In this document: positions 6,811 through 12,397 of the stretch, piece by piece
Numbering within the stretch: position 1 is the stretch's first letter
Layout: each line of letters opens with the position of its first letter
Notes under the pieces: generated by a model
The model's database searches: none
What the model saw: the letters and a program-made list of their open reading frames with translations, nothing else
What the model was told of the DNA's origin: nothing
Translations under genes and position numbers: made by a program
Source of the DNA: an uncultured Verrucomicrobia subdivision 3 bacterium
GTDB lineage: Bacteria > Verrucomicrobiota > Verrucomicrobiia > Limisphaerales > UBA11358
DNA length: 52,395 bases
Assembly: GCA_903870815.1 (NCBI GenBank)
Contig: CAIQEI010000067.1
Location: forward strand, 1 to 52,395
Reading direction: 5' to 3'

Positions 6811-6875
6811 TGTTAAAGGGTTGAATCGTTTAATCGAAAACGGTTTAACAATTTAACCATTCAACGATTTAACCA
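6811..6875. repeat. TTTAAC/TTCAAC tandem tract between ruvX and truA
   Basis: An AT-rich 65-bp tract made of 8-9 bp units. The right arm reads CGGTTTAAC, AATTTAACC, ATTCAACG, ATTTAACC. The left arm (GTTAAAGGG, TTGAATCGT, TTAATCG) is the same motif in reverse orientation, so the whole forms an imperfect inverted repeat around AAAA. It occupies nearly the whole ruvX-truA gap and abuts the truA start. The same motif occurs before fabI at 9193-9225. Confidence 0.6.
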
Positions 6876-6877
6876 GA

Positions 6878-7678
6878 GTGATATTCAAACTGACCATCGC
6901 CTACGACGGCACGGCTTACCAGGGCTGGCAGTGGCAGCGCATCGGTCTTGGCGTGCAGCAGCGCGTGGAGGAGGCGCTGGCGAAATTGTTCCCCAGCGCG
7001 CCGCGCCTGCATAGTTCCAGCCGCACGGACACCGGCGTCCACGCGCTCGGCATGGTCGCGCATTTCGAGGTGCCGGCTGTCGAGATGCGGCGGCTGACGT
7101 CCGCGCGGCTGCCCATCGCCATCAATTCGCTGCTGCCGCACGACATCCGCGTTCAGTCGGCCGTGCGCAAGCCGGCGAAGTTCCACGCGCGTTTCGACGC
7201 CACCCGCAAGCAGTATCGCTACTTCGTCTGGAATCACGTCGGCATGAACCCGCTCCTGCGCCACACCGCGTGGCACGTTCCGCGCAAACTGGATTTTGCG
7301 GCGATGCGCGCGGCGGCAAAACTGTTTCTCGGCGAGCAGGACTTTCAATCCTTCGCGTCCAATCCCGGCTACAAGCGGACGACGACCGTGCGCCACCTGA
7401 CGCGCTGCGAGTTCAAGAAATCCGGCGCGCAGCTCACCTTCATCATCGAGGGCGACGGTTTTCTCTACAAGATGTGTCGCGGCATTGTCGGGACGATTGT
7501 GCAGGTGGGCATGGGCAAATTCACTCCGGGCGAAGTCGCCGCGATGCTCGCCAAGGCCGACCGCCGCGTGGCCGGCATGAGCGCGCCCGCGCACGGCTTG
7601 GTGTTGTGGAAAGTTTATTATTCAACGCCCGGTCGCCAAGCCGCCAAGGCGCGGAATCAGGCGGAGCCTGAAGAATGA
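6878..7678 (+). CDS. truA: tRNA pseudouridine(38-40) synthase
   Basis: A 266-residue TruA, which isomerises U38-U40 in tRNA anticodon arms. The start is GTG at 6878 (MIFKLTIAYDGTAYQGWQWQ, the family opening). The catalytic aspartate lies in 'SSRTDTGVHALG' (about residue 52). Downstream are 'ARFDATRKQYRYFVWN', 'DFQSFASNPGYKRTTTVRHL' and 'FLYKMCRGIVGTIVQVG', all standard TruA blocks. No Shine-Dalgarno is visible between the repeat tract and the GTG. Confidence 0.95.
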   Translation: MIFKLTIAYDGTAYQGWQWQRIGLGVQQRVEEALAKLFPSAPRLHSSSRTDTGVHALGMVAHFEVPAVEMRRLTSARLPIAINSLLPHDIRVQSAVRKPAKFHARFDATRKQYRYFVWNHVGMNPLLRHTAWHVPRKLDFAAMRAAAKLFLGEQDFQSFASNPGYKRTTTVRHLTRCEFKKSGAQLTFIIEGDGFLYKMCRGIVGTIVQVGMGKFTPGEVAAMLAKADRRVAGMSAPAHGLVLWKVYYSTPGRQAAKARNQAEPEE

Positions 7679-7737: not shown

Positions 7738-8205
7738 ATGAACATTGTTCTGCTTGAACCGGAGATTCCGCCGAACACGGGTAACGTGGCGCGGCTGTGC
7801 GCGGCCACGAAATCCACCCTGCATCTCATCGAGCCGTTTGGTTTCAAGCTGGACGATACGCAGCTCAAGCGCGCCGGGATGGATTACTGGCAGCAGGTCG
7901 TGTGGCATCGCTGGAAGAGCTGGTCGGCGTTTGCGGAGAAGCTGCCGGCCAATGCGCGGCTCTGGTTCGTGGAATCCAGCGGCCCGAAAACTTACAGCGA
8001 GGTGAAATTTTCGACAGATGATTATCTGGTCTTCGGCCGCGAGACGGCGGGTTTGCCGAAACAGCTTTTGGAAGAGTACCGCGATAGCTGGCTGCGCATC
8101 CCGATGTTCAATCCGGAATCGCGTTCGCTGAACCTGTCGAACTGCGTGGCGATGGTGTTGTTCGAGGCGCTGCGGCAGCAAGGATTCGCCGGGGAGATTT
8201 TCTGA
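7738..8205 (+). CDS. trmL: tRNA (cytidine/uridine-34 2'-O)-methyltransferase TrmL
   Basis: A 155-residue SPOUT (trefoil-knot) methyltransferase that 2'-O-methylates the wobble base of tRNA-Leu in E. coli. The opening 'MNIVLLEPEIPPNTGNVARLCAAT' and knot motifs 'LVFGRETAGLP' and 'SLNLSNCVAMVLFEALRQQ' are diagnostic, and the length is typical (~157). It lies 59 bp after truA and probably shares its transcript, grouping two tRNA modification genes. A MITE-like repeat starts 9 bp after its stop. Confidence 0.94.
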   Translation: MNIVLLEPEIPPNTGNVARLCAATKSTLHLIEPFGFKLDDTQLKRAGMDYWQQVVWHRWKSWSAFAEKLPANARLWFVESSGPKTYSEVKFSTDDYLVFGRETAGLPKQLLEEYRDSWLRIPMFNPESRSLNLSNCVAMVLFEALRQQGFAGEIF

Positions 8206-8214
8206 AACGGCGGA

Positions 8215-8400
8215 TTAGAGCATTGACAGAAAAGGTGTAGCGATGGGCAGCGAGGATTTTTGTTTTTTTTGGCGAGGCTTCAGCGAAGGCGCAGGTTCGA
8301 AAAACCCTGTAACTGAGCTGAAACGAACCCAAAAACCAAAAAGACCGCTGTCCGCTAGGACCATTAGCCCATCGCTATATATTTGATGGAAATGCTCTAA
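8215..8400. repeat. MITE-like repeat, intact copy A (186 bp)
   Basis: The repeat is bounded by perfect 10-bp terminal inverted repeats, TTAGAGCATT at 8215-8224 and AATGCTCTAA at 8391-8400. A second inverted match lies at equal distance inside (TAGCGATGGGC at 8238-8248 and its complement GCCCATCGCTA at 8367-8377), giving 34-bp imperfect ends. No coding sequence is inside. The same element occurs in two halves around the IS110 element (10006-10098 and 11705-11798). It fills the space between the convergent genes trmL and the M50 protease, and its right end supplies the TAG stop of the protease. T-runs on both strands near the middle may end transcription. Confidence 0.85.
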
Positions 8401-9047
8401 TTCAGCGCGATTCTCACACCGAAGGTTCGCACCAGCAACTCCAGCGTGCCATAAGTCACGAATCCCAACGCATTGCGGACCGGCGGAACTTGCAGCAGTA
8501 CGATGATGATGATAAACCCGAACCGCGCAAAGTTGGCGTAGGTCTCATGGCTCATCCCGGTCGCTACGCGCAAAATGTGCGAGCCGTCCAGCGGCGGCAC
8601 CGGAATCAGGTTGAAAAAACAAAGGATCAAACTCAACCCCGCCGCCCGCAAACACAACTCGATCATCTGATCCGATTGAAACATCATGCCGACCCGCGCC
8701 AGCGCCACCAGGCCGATGGCGAGCAGGAGATTCATCCCCGGCCCGGCCAGCGTCACGAGGATGTCATCGCGCTTCGGATGGTTGAGATTGTAGGGATTGA
8801 CCGGCACGGGCTTCGCCCAGCCGATCAGAAAACGTCCCGCGCCCGGCATGAAAATCATCAGCAGCGGCAGCAGCACCGTGCCGATGGGGTCGATGTGCAC
8901 GACGGGGTTCAGGGAGACGCGGCCCTGCAGGCGCGCCGTGTCGTCGCCGCATTTCCACGCCGTCCACGCGTGGCCGTATTCGTGAAAGGTCAGCAGCGCC
9001 ACCAGCATCAGATACTGGATCAGTCCGTCGGCTATGTTTGGGTCCAT
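8397..9047 (-). CDS. Site-2 protease family (M50) membrane metallopeptidase
   Basis: A 216-residue polytopic protein of the short M50 group. The zinc motif HEYGH lies in the first helix ('LVALLTFHEYGHAWTAWKCGDDTA') and the distal ligand region is 'CFFNLIPVPPLDGSHIL'. Between them are 'LNPVVHIDPIGTVLLPLLMIF' and 'GWAKPVPVNPYNL', which are characteristic of this subfamily. About five hydrophobic segments are visible. I start at ATG 9047 (MDPNIADGLIQ); 20 more residues upstream are polar and non-conserved. The last codons and the TAG stop lie at the end of the repeat at 8215-8400, so its 3' end may have been altered by that insertion. The substrate is unknown. Confidence 0.9.
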   Translation of the reverse strand: MDPNIADGLIQYLMLVALLTFHEYGHAWTAWKCGDDTARLQGRVSLNPVVHIDPIGTVLLPLLMIFMPGAGRFLIGWAKPVPVNPYNLNHPKRDDILVTLAGPGMNLLLAIGLVALARVGMMFQSDQMIELCLRAAGLSLILCFFNLIPVPPLDGSHILRVATGMSHETYANFARFGFIIIIVLLQVPPVRNALGFVTYGTLELLVRTFGVRIALN

Positions 9048-9192
9048 CGCCCCCAGTCTAAACCGTTCGCCGCCGGTGAGTCGAGGCTGTGAATCGTTGG
9101 AGTTCAAGCTTTAGCTTGTCGGCGACCTCAAGCGGGAATGCCCATGTGAATTTGCTTTGCGCGGACGGACCAAAACACTTTAACATCGCCGC

Positions 9193-9225
9193 GGTTCAAT
9201 GATTTAACTGTTCAACGATTTACGC
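9193..9225. repeat. TTCAAC/TTTAAC tract upstream of fabI
   Basis: Short AT-rich units GGTTCAATG, ATTTAACTG, TTCAACG, ATTTACG occupy the 33 bp before the fabI start. The 'TTCAACGATTTA' string is shared with the tract before truA (6811-6875). Function unknown; the position suggests leader or promoter DNA. Confidence 0.5.
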
Positions 9226-9229
9226 ACTT

Positions 9230-10000
9230 ATGCCACAACTTGAAGGAAAAACCGGTATCGTCTTCGGCGTCGCCAACAAACGCTCCATCGCCTGGGCCAT
9301 CGCGCAGGCCTGGGCCCGGGAAGGCGCGAAGCTGGCGTTTACCTACCAGGGCGAACGCGTGAAGGAAAATGTCGAGGAGCTGGCCGGCACCTTCGGTGCG
9401 GACACGCTGATCCTGCCCTGCGACGTGACCAAGGACGAGGACATCGACCGCGTGTTCAGTGAGGTCGGCGCGAAGTTTGGCAAATTAAACCTGCTCCTGC
9501 ATTCCGTGGCGTTCGCGCCGAAGGCCGCGCTCGAAGGCGAATTTGTGAACACCACCCGCGAAGCTTACCGCGTGGCGCACGATGTCAGCGCCTATTCGCT
9601 GGTGGCGCTGGCCCGGGCCGCGGCGCCGTTGATGACCGACGGCGGCAGCATCATGGCCATGAGTTATTTCGGCGCGGAAAAAGTCGTGCCGCATTACAAC
9701 GTCATGGGGGTGGCCAAGGCGTCCCTCGAAGCCAGTACGCGCTATCTCGCCTACGATCTCGGCCCGAAAAAAATTCGGGTGAACTGCATCAGCGCCGGCC
9801 CGGTCAACACGCTCGCCGCGCGCGGCATCGCCGGCTTCATGGAAATGCTCAAGACCTACGAGCAGCGGTCGCCCTTGAAGCGCAACCTGGTGCCCGAAGA
9901 ACTCGGGGCCACCGGTGTGTTCCTGGCCAGCGACGGCGCGGCCTGCATCACCGGCCAGGTGATCTACGTGGACGGCGGCTACTCGATCATGGGGATGTGA
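9230..10000 (+). CDS. fabI: Enoyl-[acyl-carrier-protein] reductase (NADH)
   Basis: A 256-residue FabI, the last step of each fatty-acid elongation round. The divergent SDR features of FabI are present: 'GKTGIVFGVANKRSIAWAIAQAW' as nucleotide-binding loop, 'LLHSVAFAPK', and the catalytic Tyr-x6-Lys in 'YNVMGVAKASLEASTRYLAYDLG', followed by 'RVNCISAGPVNTLAARGI'. The C-terminus 'GVFLASDGAACITGQVIYVDGGYSIMGM' is complete. It stands alone, downstream of a short repeat tract; 5 bp after its stop begins the second MITE copy. Confidence 0.97.
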   Translation: MPQLEGKTGIVFGVANKRSIAWAIAQAWAREGAKLAFTYQGERVKENVEELAGTFGADTLILPCDVTKDEDIDRVFSEVGAKFGKLNLLLHSVAFAPKAALEGEFVNTTREAYRVAHDVSAYSLVALARAAAPLMTDGGSIMAMSYFGAEKVVPHYNVMGVAKASLEASTRYLAYDLGPKKIRVNCISAGPVNTLAARGIAGFMEMLKTYEQRSPLKRNLVPEELGATGVFLASDGAACITGQVIYVDGGYSIMGM

Positions 10001-10005
10001 TCCGG

Positions 10006-10098
10006 TTGGAGCGTTTGAAGAAATGCTGTAGCCCTTCGGAGCGAGGATTTTTGGATTTTGGCGAGGCTTTGGCGAAGGAGCAGGTTCGAAGCAACCCT
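10006..10098. repeat. MITE-like repeat copy B, left half
   Basis: The left 93 bp of the repeat seen intact at 8215-8400. The end TTGGAGCGTTT is a diverged form of TTAGAGCATT, and the interior shares 'GCGAGGATTTTTG', 'TTTGGCGAGGCTT' and 'GCAGGTTCGAA' with copy A. Similarity stops after AACCCT at 10098, exactly where the IS110 element begins. Together with 11707-11798 it rebuilds a 185-bp element, one base shorter than copy A. Confidence 0.82.
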
Positions 10099-10113
10099 TC
10101 CCATGAACTACCT

Positions 10114-11460
10114 CTATGTACTGGTCGAAGGCGTCTCTTTGGGTTGGAAATTTGGAATGACGACATGGCCGAGTTGTCTGGCCAGACGCACCAAGGCTCG
10201 CCGTTTAGTTTCCAGGACCTGCTCTTCGTATTTTGCCAGGCCTTGCTCGACGTAGCTGCCTCCATGCACCATCAAGCGCCAGAACCAGACGGCCAGTTTT
10301 CTGGCCAGCGCCACGTTCGCCAGCAGGCCTCCCCGCCGAGCCGCCATGCGGCGGTAAAAACCGCCTAAAGCCAGATGCTTGCTGCGCGCCAGGCTCCGCG
10401 CTATGACGCAAAATATCCGACCCGTGCGATTGCGTTTGCGTCCGATCGAGCGCCGATATTTTCCACTCTGATGACTTCCCGGCACCAACCCGGCCCAAGC
10501 CGTGAAGTGCTTCTCGGTGGGCCACGCTTTCAGGTCCGTCCCCACTTCGCCCAGAAGCTGCAACCAGCTATAGTCAGTGTGGGCAGGCAACACGGTCACG
10601 TCTTTACCGCCACACCAACGCACCAGCAGGCCATGCAAGTCCGCGATGTCAGGGGCATTGACGCCGGGCTTTCGCAATGACCGCTTCGGCTCGTCGGTTT
10701 GGGTGGGCGGCCCGTTGATCTCACGCAAGACATTCGCAATCTCCTGATCACACGCCGCGATGAGTTGCTGGTAATGTTTCCAGCTTTCCTTTGCCTGCTT
10801 CAAGGCAAAGAGATGCTGTTCCTGCCAGTTTCCGCGCAACGATTCGATGACTCGGACCCGCTTGTTTTCGCGAATGCTGTGGTCGCAAAGCTCTAGCAAC
10901 CGCTCCGGGTTGCGTTCCCCGGCGAGGATGCCCTCAATGACCCTCTGCCCGCTCACCCCCGAAAGACTGCTGATCACGTCATGGAGCTTGATATTCATTC
11001 GCTCCAAAGCTTTTTGCTGGAGTTGAATGCAACTGGCGGCATTGGCAATGTGATCGCACCGGAGACGTAAATAATCCTGCAATCGCCGCACGTGCTCCGG
11101 CGGGACAAAGCCCGCGCGCAACAAACCATGAGCGTGCAAGGTCGCCCCCCACTGGCAATCCTGCATATCGCTCTTGCGCCCCGGCAGATTGCGCGTCTGC
11201 TTGCCATTGACCATCATTACAGCAAACCCCGCCGCTTCCAACACGCTATAGAGCGGCAGCCAGTACACTCCTGTGGCCTCCATCGCCACCGCCTGCGCCC
11301 CCTGGCTTTTCAACCAGTCCCGCAACCGATGCAACTCGGCCGTGACAGCACCAAACACCTCCGGCGTACCCCCGGCGATGGACACGTGAAGCTTTTCGCT
11401 GCCCACGTCGACAAAAGCAGCATGCTCATCGAGCAGATTCAATTTGACCGCTTGATTCAT
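10114..11460 (-). CDS. IS110-family transposase/recombinase
   Basis: A 448-residue IS110 recombinase. The N-terminal RuvC-like DEDD domain shows Asp18 in 'FVDVGSEKLHVSI', Glu61 in 'AVAMEATGVYW', and the acidic pair in 'GRKSDMQDCQW' near residues 100-103. The C-terminal Tnp_20 domain has 'FTAWAGLVPGSHQSGKYRRSIGRKRNR', containing the serine nucleophile region. A coiled-coil stretch links them (about residues 155-275). No frameshift or stop is seen, so it is probably functional. Known of the family: it works with a structured non-coding bridge RNA to pair donor and target DNA. It is somewhat longer than typical members (~330-400). Confidence 0.93.
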   Translation of the reverse strand: MNQAVKLNLLDEHAAFVDVGSEKLHVSIAGGTPEVFGAVTAELHRLRDWLKSQGAQAVAMEATGVYWLPLYSVLEAAGFAVMMVNGKQTRNLPGRKSDMQDCQWGATLHAHGLLRAGFVPPEHVRRLQDYLRLRCDHIANAASCIQLQQKALERMNIKLHDVISSLSGVSGQRVIEGILAGERNPERLLELCDHSIRENKRVRVIESLRGNWQEQHLFALKQAKESWKHYQQLIAACDQEIANVLREINGPPTQTDEPKRSLRKPGVNAPDIADLHGLLVRWCGGKDVTVLPAHTDYSWLQLLGEVGTDLKAWPTEKHFTAWAGLVPGSHQSGKYRRSIGRKRNRTGRIFCVIARSLARSKHLALGGFYRRMAARRGGLLANVALARKLAVWFWRLMVHGGSYVEQGLAKYEEQVLETKRRALVRLARQLGHVVIPNFQPKETPSTST

Positions 11461-11706
11461 AGGGTTTTCCTTTCATCGCCGCTGGCCATAAGCCCAAAGG
11501 CAGAATCTGGAAGAAGATAAATCTTCCCAACGGGAAAACCCTTTCGGGCCTCACCAAAATGTGCACCAGCCAGCCTTCAGAACCATCCTGTGACACGGGC
11601 TCAAAGCACCATAATGCTGTACGGTTATATTTGCTCATGGCCAACGACTAACAAGACTCTACCCAGTTCATGGGCCGTGAGCAGTTTCAAATTGAAACTG
11701 GAAGCT
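11461..11706 (-). ncRNA. Candidate IS110 bridge RNA region (non-coding upstream end)
   Basis: This is the 246-bp non-coding part between the element end and the transposase ATG. By analogy with IS110-group elements such as IS621, the bridge RNA should be transcribed from here in the transposase direction. Read that way, it contains GTCACAGG (complement of 11587-11594), which pairs over 8 nt with the rebuilt target CCTGTGAC spanning the CT core. It also holds AGGGTTTT (complement of 11535-11542), resembling the other half of the target. The strong stem CAGTTTCAA/TTGAAACTG lies at 11682-11700. No transcript boundary can be seen; the assignment is inference. Confidence 0.45.
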
Positions 11707-11798
11707 GTGACTGAGCCGAAACGAAGCCAAAACCTAAAAAGACCGCCCTCTTACTTCAGCCAAACCGAACGGCTACAGTTATTTTGAAAATGCTCTAA
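11707..11798. repeat. MITE-like repeat copy B, right half
   Basis: The right 92 bp of the repeat. It shares 'ACTGAGC(C/T)GAAACGAA', 'AAAAAGACCGC' and the terminal AATGCTCTAA (11789-11798) with copy A. As in copy A, the terminal repeat provides the TAG stop codon of the convergent minus-strand gene, here the flavin reductase (stop at 11795-11797). Confidence 0.82.
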
Positions 11799-12397
11799 TC
11801 CGGCCGCTTCAGCTCAAACCGATCGCTGGTCTTGCAATACCAGTGCGGCGACGCCATCCGGCCGATGGTTAGAAGTTTTTCCGTGCGCACCCGCTTCTTC
11901 TCCGCGTCAAACAGTTCATCGCGGAGGTGAATGCGCTTGATTAGGCCGATGACCACGCGGTTGCCGCCGATCTGCAACGTGCCCCATTCCACACATTCCA
12001 GACTCGCCGGCGCCTCGGCGATGCGCGGCGGCTTCACCCCGGTCGACGGCGCCGCGTGCAATCCGGCGCGCTTCAGCTCATTTTCCCCGAACGGCAGCGA
12101 CGCGGCGCACTGGTTCATGGCTTCGGCGATGGCTTCGTCCACGAGGTTCACAACGAATTCGTGCGTGGCGCGGACATTGAGCGCGGTGTCCTTCGGCGTG
12201 CCGTTGTCGCGGTCGCCGGGCGCAAAGGCGCAGATCGGCGGGTTCGCCCCCAGCAGGTTGAAGAAGCTGAACGGCGCGGCGTTCACCCGGCCGTCGGCGC
12301 TCAGGGTGGTCACCAGCGCGATGGGGCGGGGCGTGACGAGGCTGGCCAGGATCGGATAAGCGCGGTCGGCGTATTCTTTTTCGAGATCAAGTTCCAT
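11795..12397 (-). CDS. Flavin reductase family protein (FMN-binding split barrel)
   Basis: A 200-residue protein with the flavin-reductase-like split-barrel pattern. The opening 'YPILASLVTPRPIALVTTLSADGRVNAAPFSFFNLLGANPPICAFAPG' gives the FMN phosphate-binding 'PRPIALVTT-x-x-x-DG-x-x-N-x-APFS' block, and 'KDTALNVRATHEFVVNLV' is the next conserved strand-helix unit. The partner and substrate cannot be told; members reduce flavins for oxygenases or act as oxidoreductases. It lies 9 bp downstream of rsmB and is probably cotranscribed. Its stop codon lies in the adjacent repeat. Confidence 0.88.
   Translation of the reverse strand: MELDLEKEYADRAYPILASLVTPRPIALVTTLSADGRVNAAPFSFFNLLGANPPICAFAPGDRDNGTPKDTALNVRATHEFVVNLVDEAIAEAMNQCAASLPFGENELKRAGLHAAPSTGVKPPRIAEAPASLECVEWGTLQIGGNRVVIGLIKRIHLRDELFDAEKKRVRTEKLLTIGRMASPHWYCKTSDRFELKRPD

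What the first reader, a model, noticed from the sequence alone, without database searches (positions are those of the whole stretch)
8215..8400. 186-bp MITE-like repeat that sits between convergent genes and donates stop codons
Seen: both copies lie 5-9 bp after a plus-strand stop (trmL, fabI), and their right terminal repeat AATGCTCTAA provides the TAG stop of the facing minus-strand gene (M50 protease, flavin reductase). T-runs occur on both strands in the middle. Inference: the element inserts at or near gene ends and may act as a two-way terminator, which would explain its tolerated position.
Basis: partly seen in the sequence, partly recalled or inferred. Interest (0 to 1): 0.66.

Follow-up and report, generated by a model that had tools for sequence, protein, structure and literature searches.

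The report
IS630-type MITE inserted at stop codons
A short, palindromic, non-coding jumping element in a bacterial genome lands on the letters TA, often inside stop codons at gene ends, and because its own first letter is G it turns the hit codon into a working TAG stop; it is a tidy example of a known kind of element, not a new class.

Summary
The 186-bp repeat is real and significant. It is a MITE of the IS630 (Tc1/mariner-like) kind: a 180-bp element, GAGC...GCTC (8218-8397), flanked by a duplicated TA. Its 26-bp ends match ~1.0-kb IS630 elements found in other Verrucomicrobiota and Acidobacteria; none was found in its own genome, which holds about 30 copies or fragments in two subfamilies.

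"Stop donation" has a simple cause. The target is YTAR, the sequence that overlapping convergent TAA/TAG stops make. Insertion duplicates TA and the element supplies G, so a hit in-frame TA becomes TAG from either side. Relatives without the element show the original stops, in two loci as convergent stops sharing the TA.

The bias toward gene ends is supported: 12 of 27 placeable copies lie between convergent genes (13% expected), 0 of 27 between divergent ones (26% expected). The two-way terminator is not supported: terminator-like sites are no commoner than in shuffles. Unexpectedly, the hairpin core shows compensatory changes and is equally conserved across elements with different ends. Pneumococcal BOX/RUP repeats are published precedents for convergent placement, BOX for stop donation.

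The parts
8216..8217 (.). left copy of the TA target duplication
   Evidence: direct sequence; empty sites in relatives
8218..8397 (+). IS630-type MITE, subfamily A, 180 bp, one long imperfect hairpin
8216..8241 (+). left terminal inverted repeat (TAGAGCATTGACAGAAAAGGTGTAGC, TA included)
   Evidence: TIR pattern, 37 matches in the own genome, 0 for the reversed control pattern
8374..8399 (-). right terminal inverted repeat (TAGAGCATTTCCATCAAATATATAGC on the - strand)
   Evidence: 85-88% identical to ends of ~1.0-kb IS630 elements L151, L181, L230
8249..8350 (+). core of the hairpin, conserved across subfamilies with different ends
8398..8399 (.). right copy of the TA target duplication
8397..8399 (-). 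TAG stop of the M50 protease gene: TA from the duplication, G from the element
   Evidence: relatives L090, L091, L094 have TAA at the same codon
7738..8205 (+). SpoU-type RNA methyltransferase (trmL-like)
   Evidence: PF00588 E 2.1e-31
8397..9107 (-). M50 peptidase
   Evidence: PF02163 E 1.7e-17
9230..10000 (+). enoyl-ACP reductase (fabI-like)
   Evidence: PF13561 E 7e-93
10007..10098 (+). left arm of the second copy (subfamily B; TA mutated to TG)
10099..10109 (+). left part of the 55-bp apex module
   Evidence: intact in C66, C117, C111 and C23
10110..11660 (-). IS110-family element inserted in the apex module; CT at both junctions; boundaries ambiguous within CTACC
   Evidence: one search compared with uninterrupted copies
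10114..11460 (-). IS110-family transposase/recombinase
   Evidence: NF033542 E 1.3e-57; PF01548 and PF02371
11661..11704 (+). right part of the 55-bp apex module
11705..11797 (+). right arm of the second copy
11795..11797 (-). TAG stop of the flavin reductase gene, formed by TA plus the element's terminal C/G
11795..12397 (-). flavin reductase-like protein
   Evidence: PF01613 E 2.8e-25

Best explanation
The repeat is a non-autonomous IS630/Tc1-mariner-type element (MITE) of a Verrucomicrobiota subdivision-3 lineage. SHOWN: its 26-bp ends match those of ~1.0-kb IS630 elements in other genomes; it inserts at TA, duplicates TA, and prefers a pyrimidine before the TA seen from outside (YTAR). SHOWN at three loci by relatives without the element: insertions took place in the TA of stop codons, and at two loci the element supplies both stops while relatives' convergent stops share that TA (TTAA). 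FOLLOWS from the sequence: because the element starts with G on both strands, TA+G makes TAG, so an in-frame TA reads as a stop from either side and the protein keeps its length. SHOWN: copies face gene 3' ends in excess and avoid divergent promoter regions. INFERRED: the excess comes from the YTAR preference plus purifying selection against insertions upstream of genes, not from a terminator function. INFERRED: transposition was driven in trans by an IS630 transposase that this assembly lacks. The interior hairpin core is conserved with compensatory changes and independently of which ends it carries; its role (DNA hairpin, RNA stability element, or something needed for spread) is open.
For: TIR pattern: 37 matches in the own genome against 0 for the reversed control; 9 of 9 genomes searched had matches. 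8 of 116 loci with this end in named genomes have the facing end at 997-1009 bp, with reading frames that match NF033545 IS630 transposase (E 8.6e-37, 2.4e-34, 2.8e-28 for the three tested) and PF13358 (five of five DDE-part proteins tested). TA duplication and empty sites. Pyrimidine before TA: own genome 39 of 41 ends, against 654 of 1296 control TA; 100 of 111 ends in genome-contig loci. Stop codon exactly at the TA: own 7 of 39 scored ends vs 27 of 1296 control, Fisher p 3e-5; genome contigs 11 of 102 vs 88 of 3182, p 2e-4. Gene-end facing: own 30 vs 9 (control 690 vs 606, p 0.003); genome contigs 69 vs 33 (control 1517 vs 1665, p 7e-5). Context: 12 of 27 convergent vs 13.1% expected, p 6e-5; 0 of 27 divergent vs 26.1%, p 3e-4; stop-codon elements 7 of 27 vs 12.0% after allowing for YTAR, p 0.036. 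Patchy spread: 12 of 36 genomes of the genus including its own, and 1 of 23 others of the order.
Against: No IS630 transposase with these ends was found in the own genome (0 PF13358 matches), and the few IS630 genes in G002, G010 and G033 do not carry these ends, so mobilisation in trans is inferred. The excess at stop codons beyond the YTAR preference is modest (p 0.036). The 27 contexts rest on a home-made gene finder and were classed by me; 3 of 30 copies or fragments could not be placed, and several of the 27 are fragments. One of the 41 own ends (C9:21425) is a spurious internal match. At C145 the base before the left TA is A, so a shared TTAA there needs one later change. The MITE interior is not found in the IS630 elements, so it is not a simple internal deletion of any IS seen here.
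Confidence: 0.9

Rival explanations
1. The element is kept at convergent gene ends because it works as a bidirectional transcription terminator.
For: Convergent excess; strong hairpin on both strands; T-runs on both strands.
Against: No intrinsic-terminator-like site in the focal copy. Among 44 copies 4 (+) and 4 (-) have one, shuffles give 4.05 and 8.5. T-runs are inside the stem. 15 of 27 copies lie between co-directional genes, where I read element orientation as the same as the genes in 7 and opposite in 8. The convergent excess is equally expected from selection against upstream insertions.
Confidence: 0.12
2. Stop-codon placement is pure neutral tolerance: insertions are random among TA sites, and those that break genes or promoters are lost.
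For: The control of noncoding plus stop TA explains part: 8.9% of such TA and 12.0% of YTAR sites are stop codons.
Against: The base before TA is far from random. The observed stop-codon share, 7 of 27, and two double-stop hits in 27, where 1 of 459 control YTAR sites is a double stop, exceed the expectation, though counts are small.
Confidence: 0.25
3. It is a REP/BIME-type palindrome moved by a RAYT (Y1) transposase.
For: Palindromic, intergenic, repeated, and a target of an IS110-family element, as REPs are (PMC1525189, passages read).
Against: 180 bp with paired 26-bp terminal repeats, TA duplication and IS630 ends, unlike 20-40 bp REPs (size from the abstract start of PMC3733652).
Confidence: 0.02
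4. The unit is a truncated IS110 derivative, since an IS110-family gene lies in one copy.
For: The IS110-family gene lies inside the second copy.
Against: It sits inside a 55-bp apex module that is intact in C66, C117, C111 and C23; a close homologue (E at most 1e-60) occurs once in 50 genomes while the repeat is widespread.
Confidence: 0.01

Closest known systems
IS630-family MITEs and IS630/Tc1-mariner elements (ISY100, PMC2170065, passages read; Tenzen and Ohtsubo 1991, title only in that paper's reference list: preferential transposition to TA in 5'-CTAG-3')
   Same: TA target and TA duplication; terminal inverted repeats shared with an IS630 element; CTAG is one of the four YTAR words.
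   Different: The interior is unrelated to the IS630 elements seen; no partner copy was found in the own genome.
Pneumococcal BOX, RUP and SPRITE repeats (PMC3049150, passages read)
   Same: Over-represented between convergent genes; BOX encodes the stop codon of 36 genes without clear truncation of the protein; RUP is TA-ended (table in PMC2229807).
   Different: Different sequences and hosts; the passages I read do not describe the TA+G rule or insertion into a TA shared by two convergent stops.
Correia/NEMIS and ERIC elements (PMC2229807, passages read)
   Same: Short, with terminal repeats, TA at the ends and long hairpin transcripts; Correia hairpins are proposed RNase III substrates.
   Different: Different sequence family; no RNase III evidence here.
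REP elements as IS110 targets (PMC1525189, passages read)
   Same: An IS110-family element sits in a palindromic repeat, here inside the small hairpin at the apex.
   Different: Only one copy of this IS110 element is available, so target specificity cannot be tested.

Membership tests
IS630-derived MITE | 2-bp TA target duplication | tested here: met
   window flanks TA/TA; empty sites at trmL/M50, TPR/BioD, HK/ProRS in relatives
IS630-derived MITE | terminal inverted repeats shared with an autonomous IS630-family element | tested here: met
   26-bp ends, 85-88% identity to L151/L181/L230 for A (right end); 82-89% over 28-38 bp to L208/L210/L234 for B (right end)
IS630-derived MITE | short and without its own transposase | tested here: met
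   180 bp in the focal copy; the two-ended copies listed are 125-260 bp (which looked for 120-320)
IS630-derived MITE | several to many dispersed copies | tested here: met
   about 30 copies or fragments in the own genome; presence/absence between relatives
IS630-derived MITE | autonomous partner in the same genome | tested here: not met
   0 PF13358 matches in G000; a 96% complete draft in 176 contigs may have lost it. Not a defining requirement for MITEs in general.
IS630-derived MITE | mobilised in trans by the IS630 transposase | not testable with these tools
   needs a transposition assay
intrinsic (Rho-independent) terminator | GC-rich hairpin directly followed by a T-run | tested here: not met
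   0 in the focal element; not above shuffles in 44 copies
REP/BIME | 20-40 bp palindrome with a RAYT partner | tested here: not met
   size, paired 26-bp ends and TA duplication differ; a RAYT gene itself was not searched for
known Rfam RNA family | match to a curated covariance model | tested here: not met
   none up to E 1 in 7900-12000
IS110 family (the insert in the second copy) | DEDD transposase plus Transposase_20 domain | tested here: met
IS110 family (the insert in the second copy) | RNA-guided target choice | not tested
   single copy; a noncoding stretch of about 200 nt precedes the gene

The most novel reading that the evidence does not exclude
The hairpin core is a selected, structured module that moves between different IS630 end sets. 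Core identity between copies with different ends (0.79-0.85) is as high as among copies with the same ends (0.81-0.93), while the outer parts fall from 0.82-0.91 to 0.59-0.64 (A vs C, A vs B) or 0.78 (B vs C). The core has 67 double-change cells against 18.7 in shuffles. The + strand folds better than the - strand in 44 of 44 copies, and G-U exceeds A-C (union of pairs 104 vs 48; on pairs found from both strands 29 vs 18), as expected if a single strand, RNA or ssDNA, of one polarity is what is constrained. It could be an element-encoded RNA or a strand-specific hairpin needed for spread.
Probability: 0.15. Interest if true: 0.6.

Novelty: new member of a known kind. Interest (0 to 1): 0.42.

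Why it matters
It gives a concrete, testable reason why a bacterial MITE sits at, and donates, stop codons: a YTAR target equals two overlapping convergent TAA/TAG stops, and a terminal G rebuilds TAG on both sides. The same reasoning could be tested on other TA-inserting repeats. It also warns annotators that gene ends next to such repeats are borrowed, and offers a family whose conserved core and changing ends could show what a MITE interior is for.

Tried and rejected
Terminator reading: scans of the focal copy, of the second copy's region, and of 44 copies against shuffles. The 2-kb region around the second copy does have 7 terminator-like sites against 2.5 in shuffles; six lie in the IS110 insert and one weak one (5 pairs, 10034-10046) in the left arm; none of this supports a general terminator. 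Rfam: nothing. IS110 origin: rejected. Autonomous partner in the own genome: not found; IS630 genes in three relatives lack these ends. Plasmid and phage records: no match; viral contigs: no exact core match. Phylum sample: 2 of 387 genomes, own and one of the same genus, but only up to 2 candidates per genome were scored. A host-level orientation preference: none seen (7 same, 8 opposite among 15 co-directional copies, read by me). The first pattern search carried one N too many and was useless; the first context script had loci on minus strands wrongly flipped and was redone. Crude end labels call L070 and L073 'AB' because of single substitutions; only L072 looks like a true hybrid. Literature: searches did not show a paper stating the TA+G rule or the shared-stop target; the library holds open-licence papers only, so this is not proof of absence. 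I recall, without a call, that ERIC papers discuss placement near stop codons.

Full report
What is there. The unit at 8215-8400 reads TTAGAGCATT...AATGCTCTAA. The window is contig C67 of a 3.17-Mb draft in 176 contigs. Own-genome blastn finds 27 matches to it, among them copies 96% identical over 185 bp and 85% over 184 bp. A second query from a diverged copy brings 50 matches. Merged by place these are about 30 copies or fragments in two subfamilies: A, like the focal copy, and B (TTAGAGCGTTTGAAGAAATACTG...). The focal copy folds into one long hairpin on either strand (z -9.2 and -7.4). Nothing in Rfam matches 7900-12000. Host: contig number and coordinates of one relative, G002:C336, coincide with a record of the CAIMLG01 series, an uncultured Verrucomicrobia subdivision 3 bacterium (L212); I infer that the window's host is of the same genus.

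The second copy is a composite. The fabI/flavin-reductase copy is a B element whose left arm (10007-10098) and right arm (11705-11797) are parted by a 55-bp apex module, intact in C66, C117, C111 and C23, and by an IS110-family element of about 1551 bp inserted in that module with CT at both junctions. The gene matches NF033542 (E 1.3e-57). A close homologue (E at most 1e-60) occurs once in 50 genomes, so its target rule cannot be tested.

What it is. A 26-letter pattern of the ends gives 37 matches in the own genome and none for the reversed pattern. In 8 of the 116 the facing end lies 997-1009 bp away, enclosing reading frames that match IS630 transposase (NF033545, E 8.6e-37 to 2.8e-28, three tested, the last just under the curated cut-off) and PF13358 (five of five DDE-part proteins tested). 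Focal-type ends are closest to one IS630 group (L151, L181, L230), B-type ends to another (L208, L210, L234); beyond the ends nothing is shared. Own genome: no PF13358 match. So the repeat is a MITE with IS630 ends and without a detected partner at home.

Insertion site. Relatives give empty sites. For trmL/M50, 5 of 20 relatives' loci hold both genes, facing, without the element; in L090, L091 and L094 the M50 stop is TAA at the codon that is TAG in the window, and in L091 the two genes' stops overlap and share the TA. For the TPR-protein/BioD pair on C23, where the element supplies both stops, L307 reads AAAAAT TAATCTTTCACC: both stops share the TA of TTAA. For the histidine-kinase/prolyl-tRNA-synthetase pair on C145, again with both stops in the element, L277 reads GAAAATTAAGCGGC with the same overlap; other relatives at these two loci have gaps of 8 to several hundred nt between the genes, so the overlap is not general. 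Hence the duplication is TA, and the proteins keep their ends. The base before TA is a pyrimidine at 39 of 41 own ends (control 654 of 1296) and at 100 of 111 ends elsewhere. YTAR is what two overlapping convergent TAA/TAG stops spell; TA followed by the element's G spells TAG.

Is the placement more than chance? Own genome: 30 ends face a gene's 3' end and 9 a 5' end, 2 undetermined (control 690 to 606, p 0.003); 7 of 39 scored ends lie exactly in a stop codon (control 27 of 1296, p 3e-5) (one of the 41 ends is a spurious internal match, and ends with more than 3 mismatches, such as two stop-donating ends on C123, are not in this count). Named-genome loci: of 118 ends 69 face 3', 33 face 5', 8 were inside a predicted gene, 7 had under 300 bases of flank, 1 had no gene; 11 of 102 in a stop codon (control 88 of 3182, p 2e-4) (some loci come from the same genome). 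Per element: of 30, 3 could not be placed; of 27, 12 lie between convergent genes, 15 between co-directional, 0 between divergent (classed by me). In 425,596 bases of the same genome YTAR sites in noncoding DNA or stop codons are 13.1% convergent and 26.1% divergent, 12.0% are stop codons and 1 of 459 is a double stop. The binomial p values are 6e-5 (convergent), 3e-4 (divergent), 0.036 (stop codon) and 0.0016 (two double stops). The gene finder is home-made, and several of the 27 are fragments.

How it works. The ends, the TA duplication and the empty sites fix the mechanism of arrival: IS630-type cut-and-paste at TA, preferring YTAR. Restoration of TAG follows from the sequence. I infer that upstream insertions are lost to selection, which leaves the excess at 3' ends. 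A published survey finds IS630 over-represented between convergent genes (PMC9208149, section read), and pneumococcal BOX, RUP and SPRITE behave alike, BOX encoding 36 stop codons (PMC3049150, passages read); that paper offers the same tolerance argument. The terminator reading finds no sequence support: none in the focal element, 4 and 4 of 44 copies on the two strands against shuffled means of 4.05 and 8.5.

What does not fit a plain parasite. On an alignment of 44 copies (chosen from 87 two-ended candidates for similarity and length) a 46-pair hairpin is kept in 94.2% of cells; 188 cells carry changes on both sides against 66.1 in shuffles and at most 51 when the partner is slid. For the core alone it is 67 against 18.7, slid at most 13. 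The structure was derived from the same alignment, and related sequences inflate such counts. The core is as similar between copies with different ends as between copies with the same ends, the outer parts are not. The + strand folds better in 44 of 44, and the consensus energy is -34.0 against -4.9 for the other strand, with G-U cells exceeding A-C cells (104 to 48 on the union of pairs; but 29 to 18 on pairs found from both strands, a weaker bias). Orientation relative to co-directional genes shows no preference (7 and 8). These points are unexplained and carry the novel reading.

Novelty. A new member of a known kind: an IS630-type MITE family with a clear account of its stop-codon habit. 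Convergent placement and stop donation have precedents; the exact coincidence of target, duplication and terminal G I did not find stated in the searches listed.

Noticed in passing
10099-11704: IS110-family element inserted in the small hairpin (CCCATGAAC...GTTCAAGGG) of a 55-bp apex module of a B-type MITE, with CT at both junctions; resembles IS110 elements that target REP palindromes.
   Followed up: partly
A1 alignment; focal core 8249-8350: The core is conserved independently of the ends; L072 has a B-type left end and an A-type right end, a hybrid.
   Followed up: partly
A1 alignment, 44 copies: The + strand folds better than the - strand in 44 of 44 copies and G-U outnumbers A-C, suggesting strand-specific constraint.
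   Followed up: partly
L028 (G000:C66:62609-63631): A predicted gene reads about 86 nt into a B-type copy, so the element may supply a protein C-terminus.
   Followed up: no
L084 (G000:C82:9484-9785): A B copy with another insert at the apex containing the palindrome GCGGCGGTCTATGTCCGCCG.
   Followed up: no
1470-1500, 6841-6879, 9176-9230: Short direct repeats of an 8-nt theme such as ATTTAACC/ATTCAACG between genes.
   Followed up: no
L230, L234, L174: The ~1.0-kb IS630 elements have the helix-turn-helix and DDE parts in two separate or overlapping frames, suggesting programmed frameshifting or decay.
   Followed up: no
L083 (G000:C123:8435-10577): Three copies within about 2.2 kb, two of them supplying the stop of the preceding gene.
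   Followed up: no
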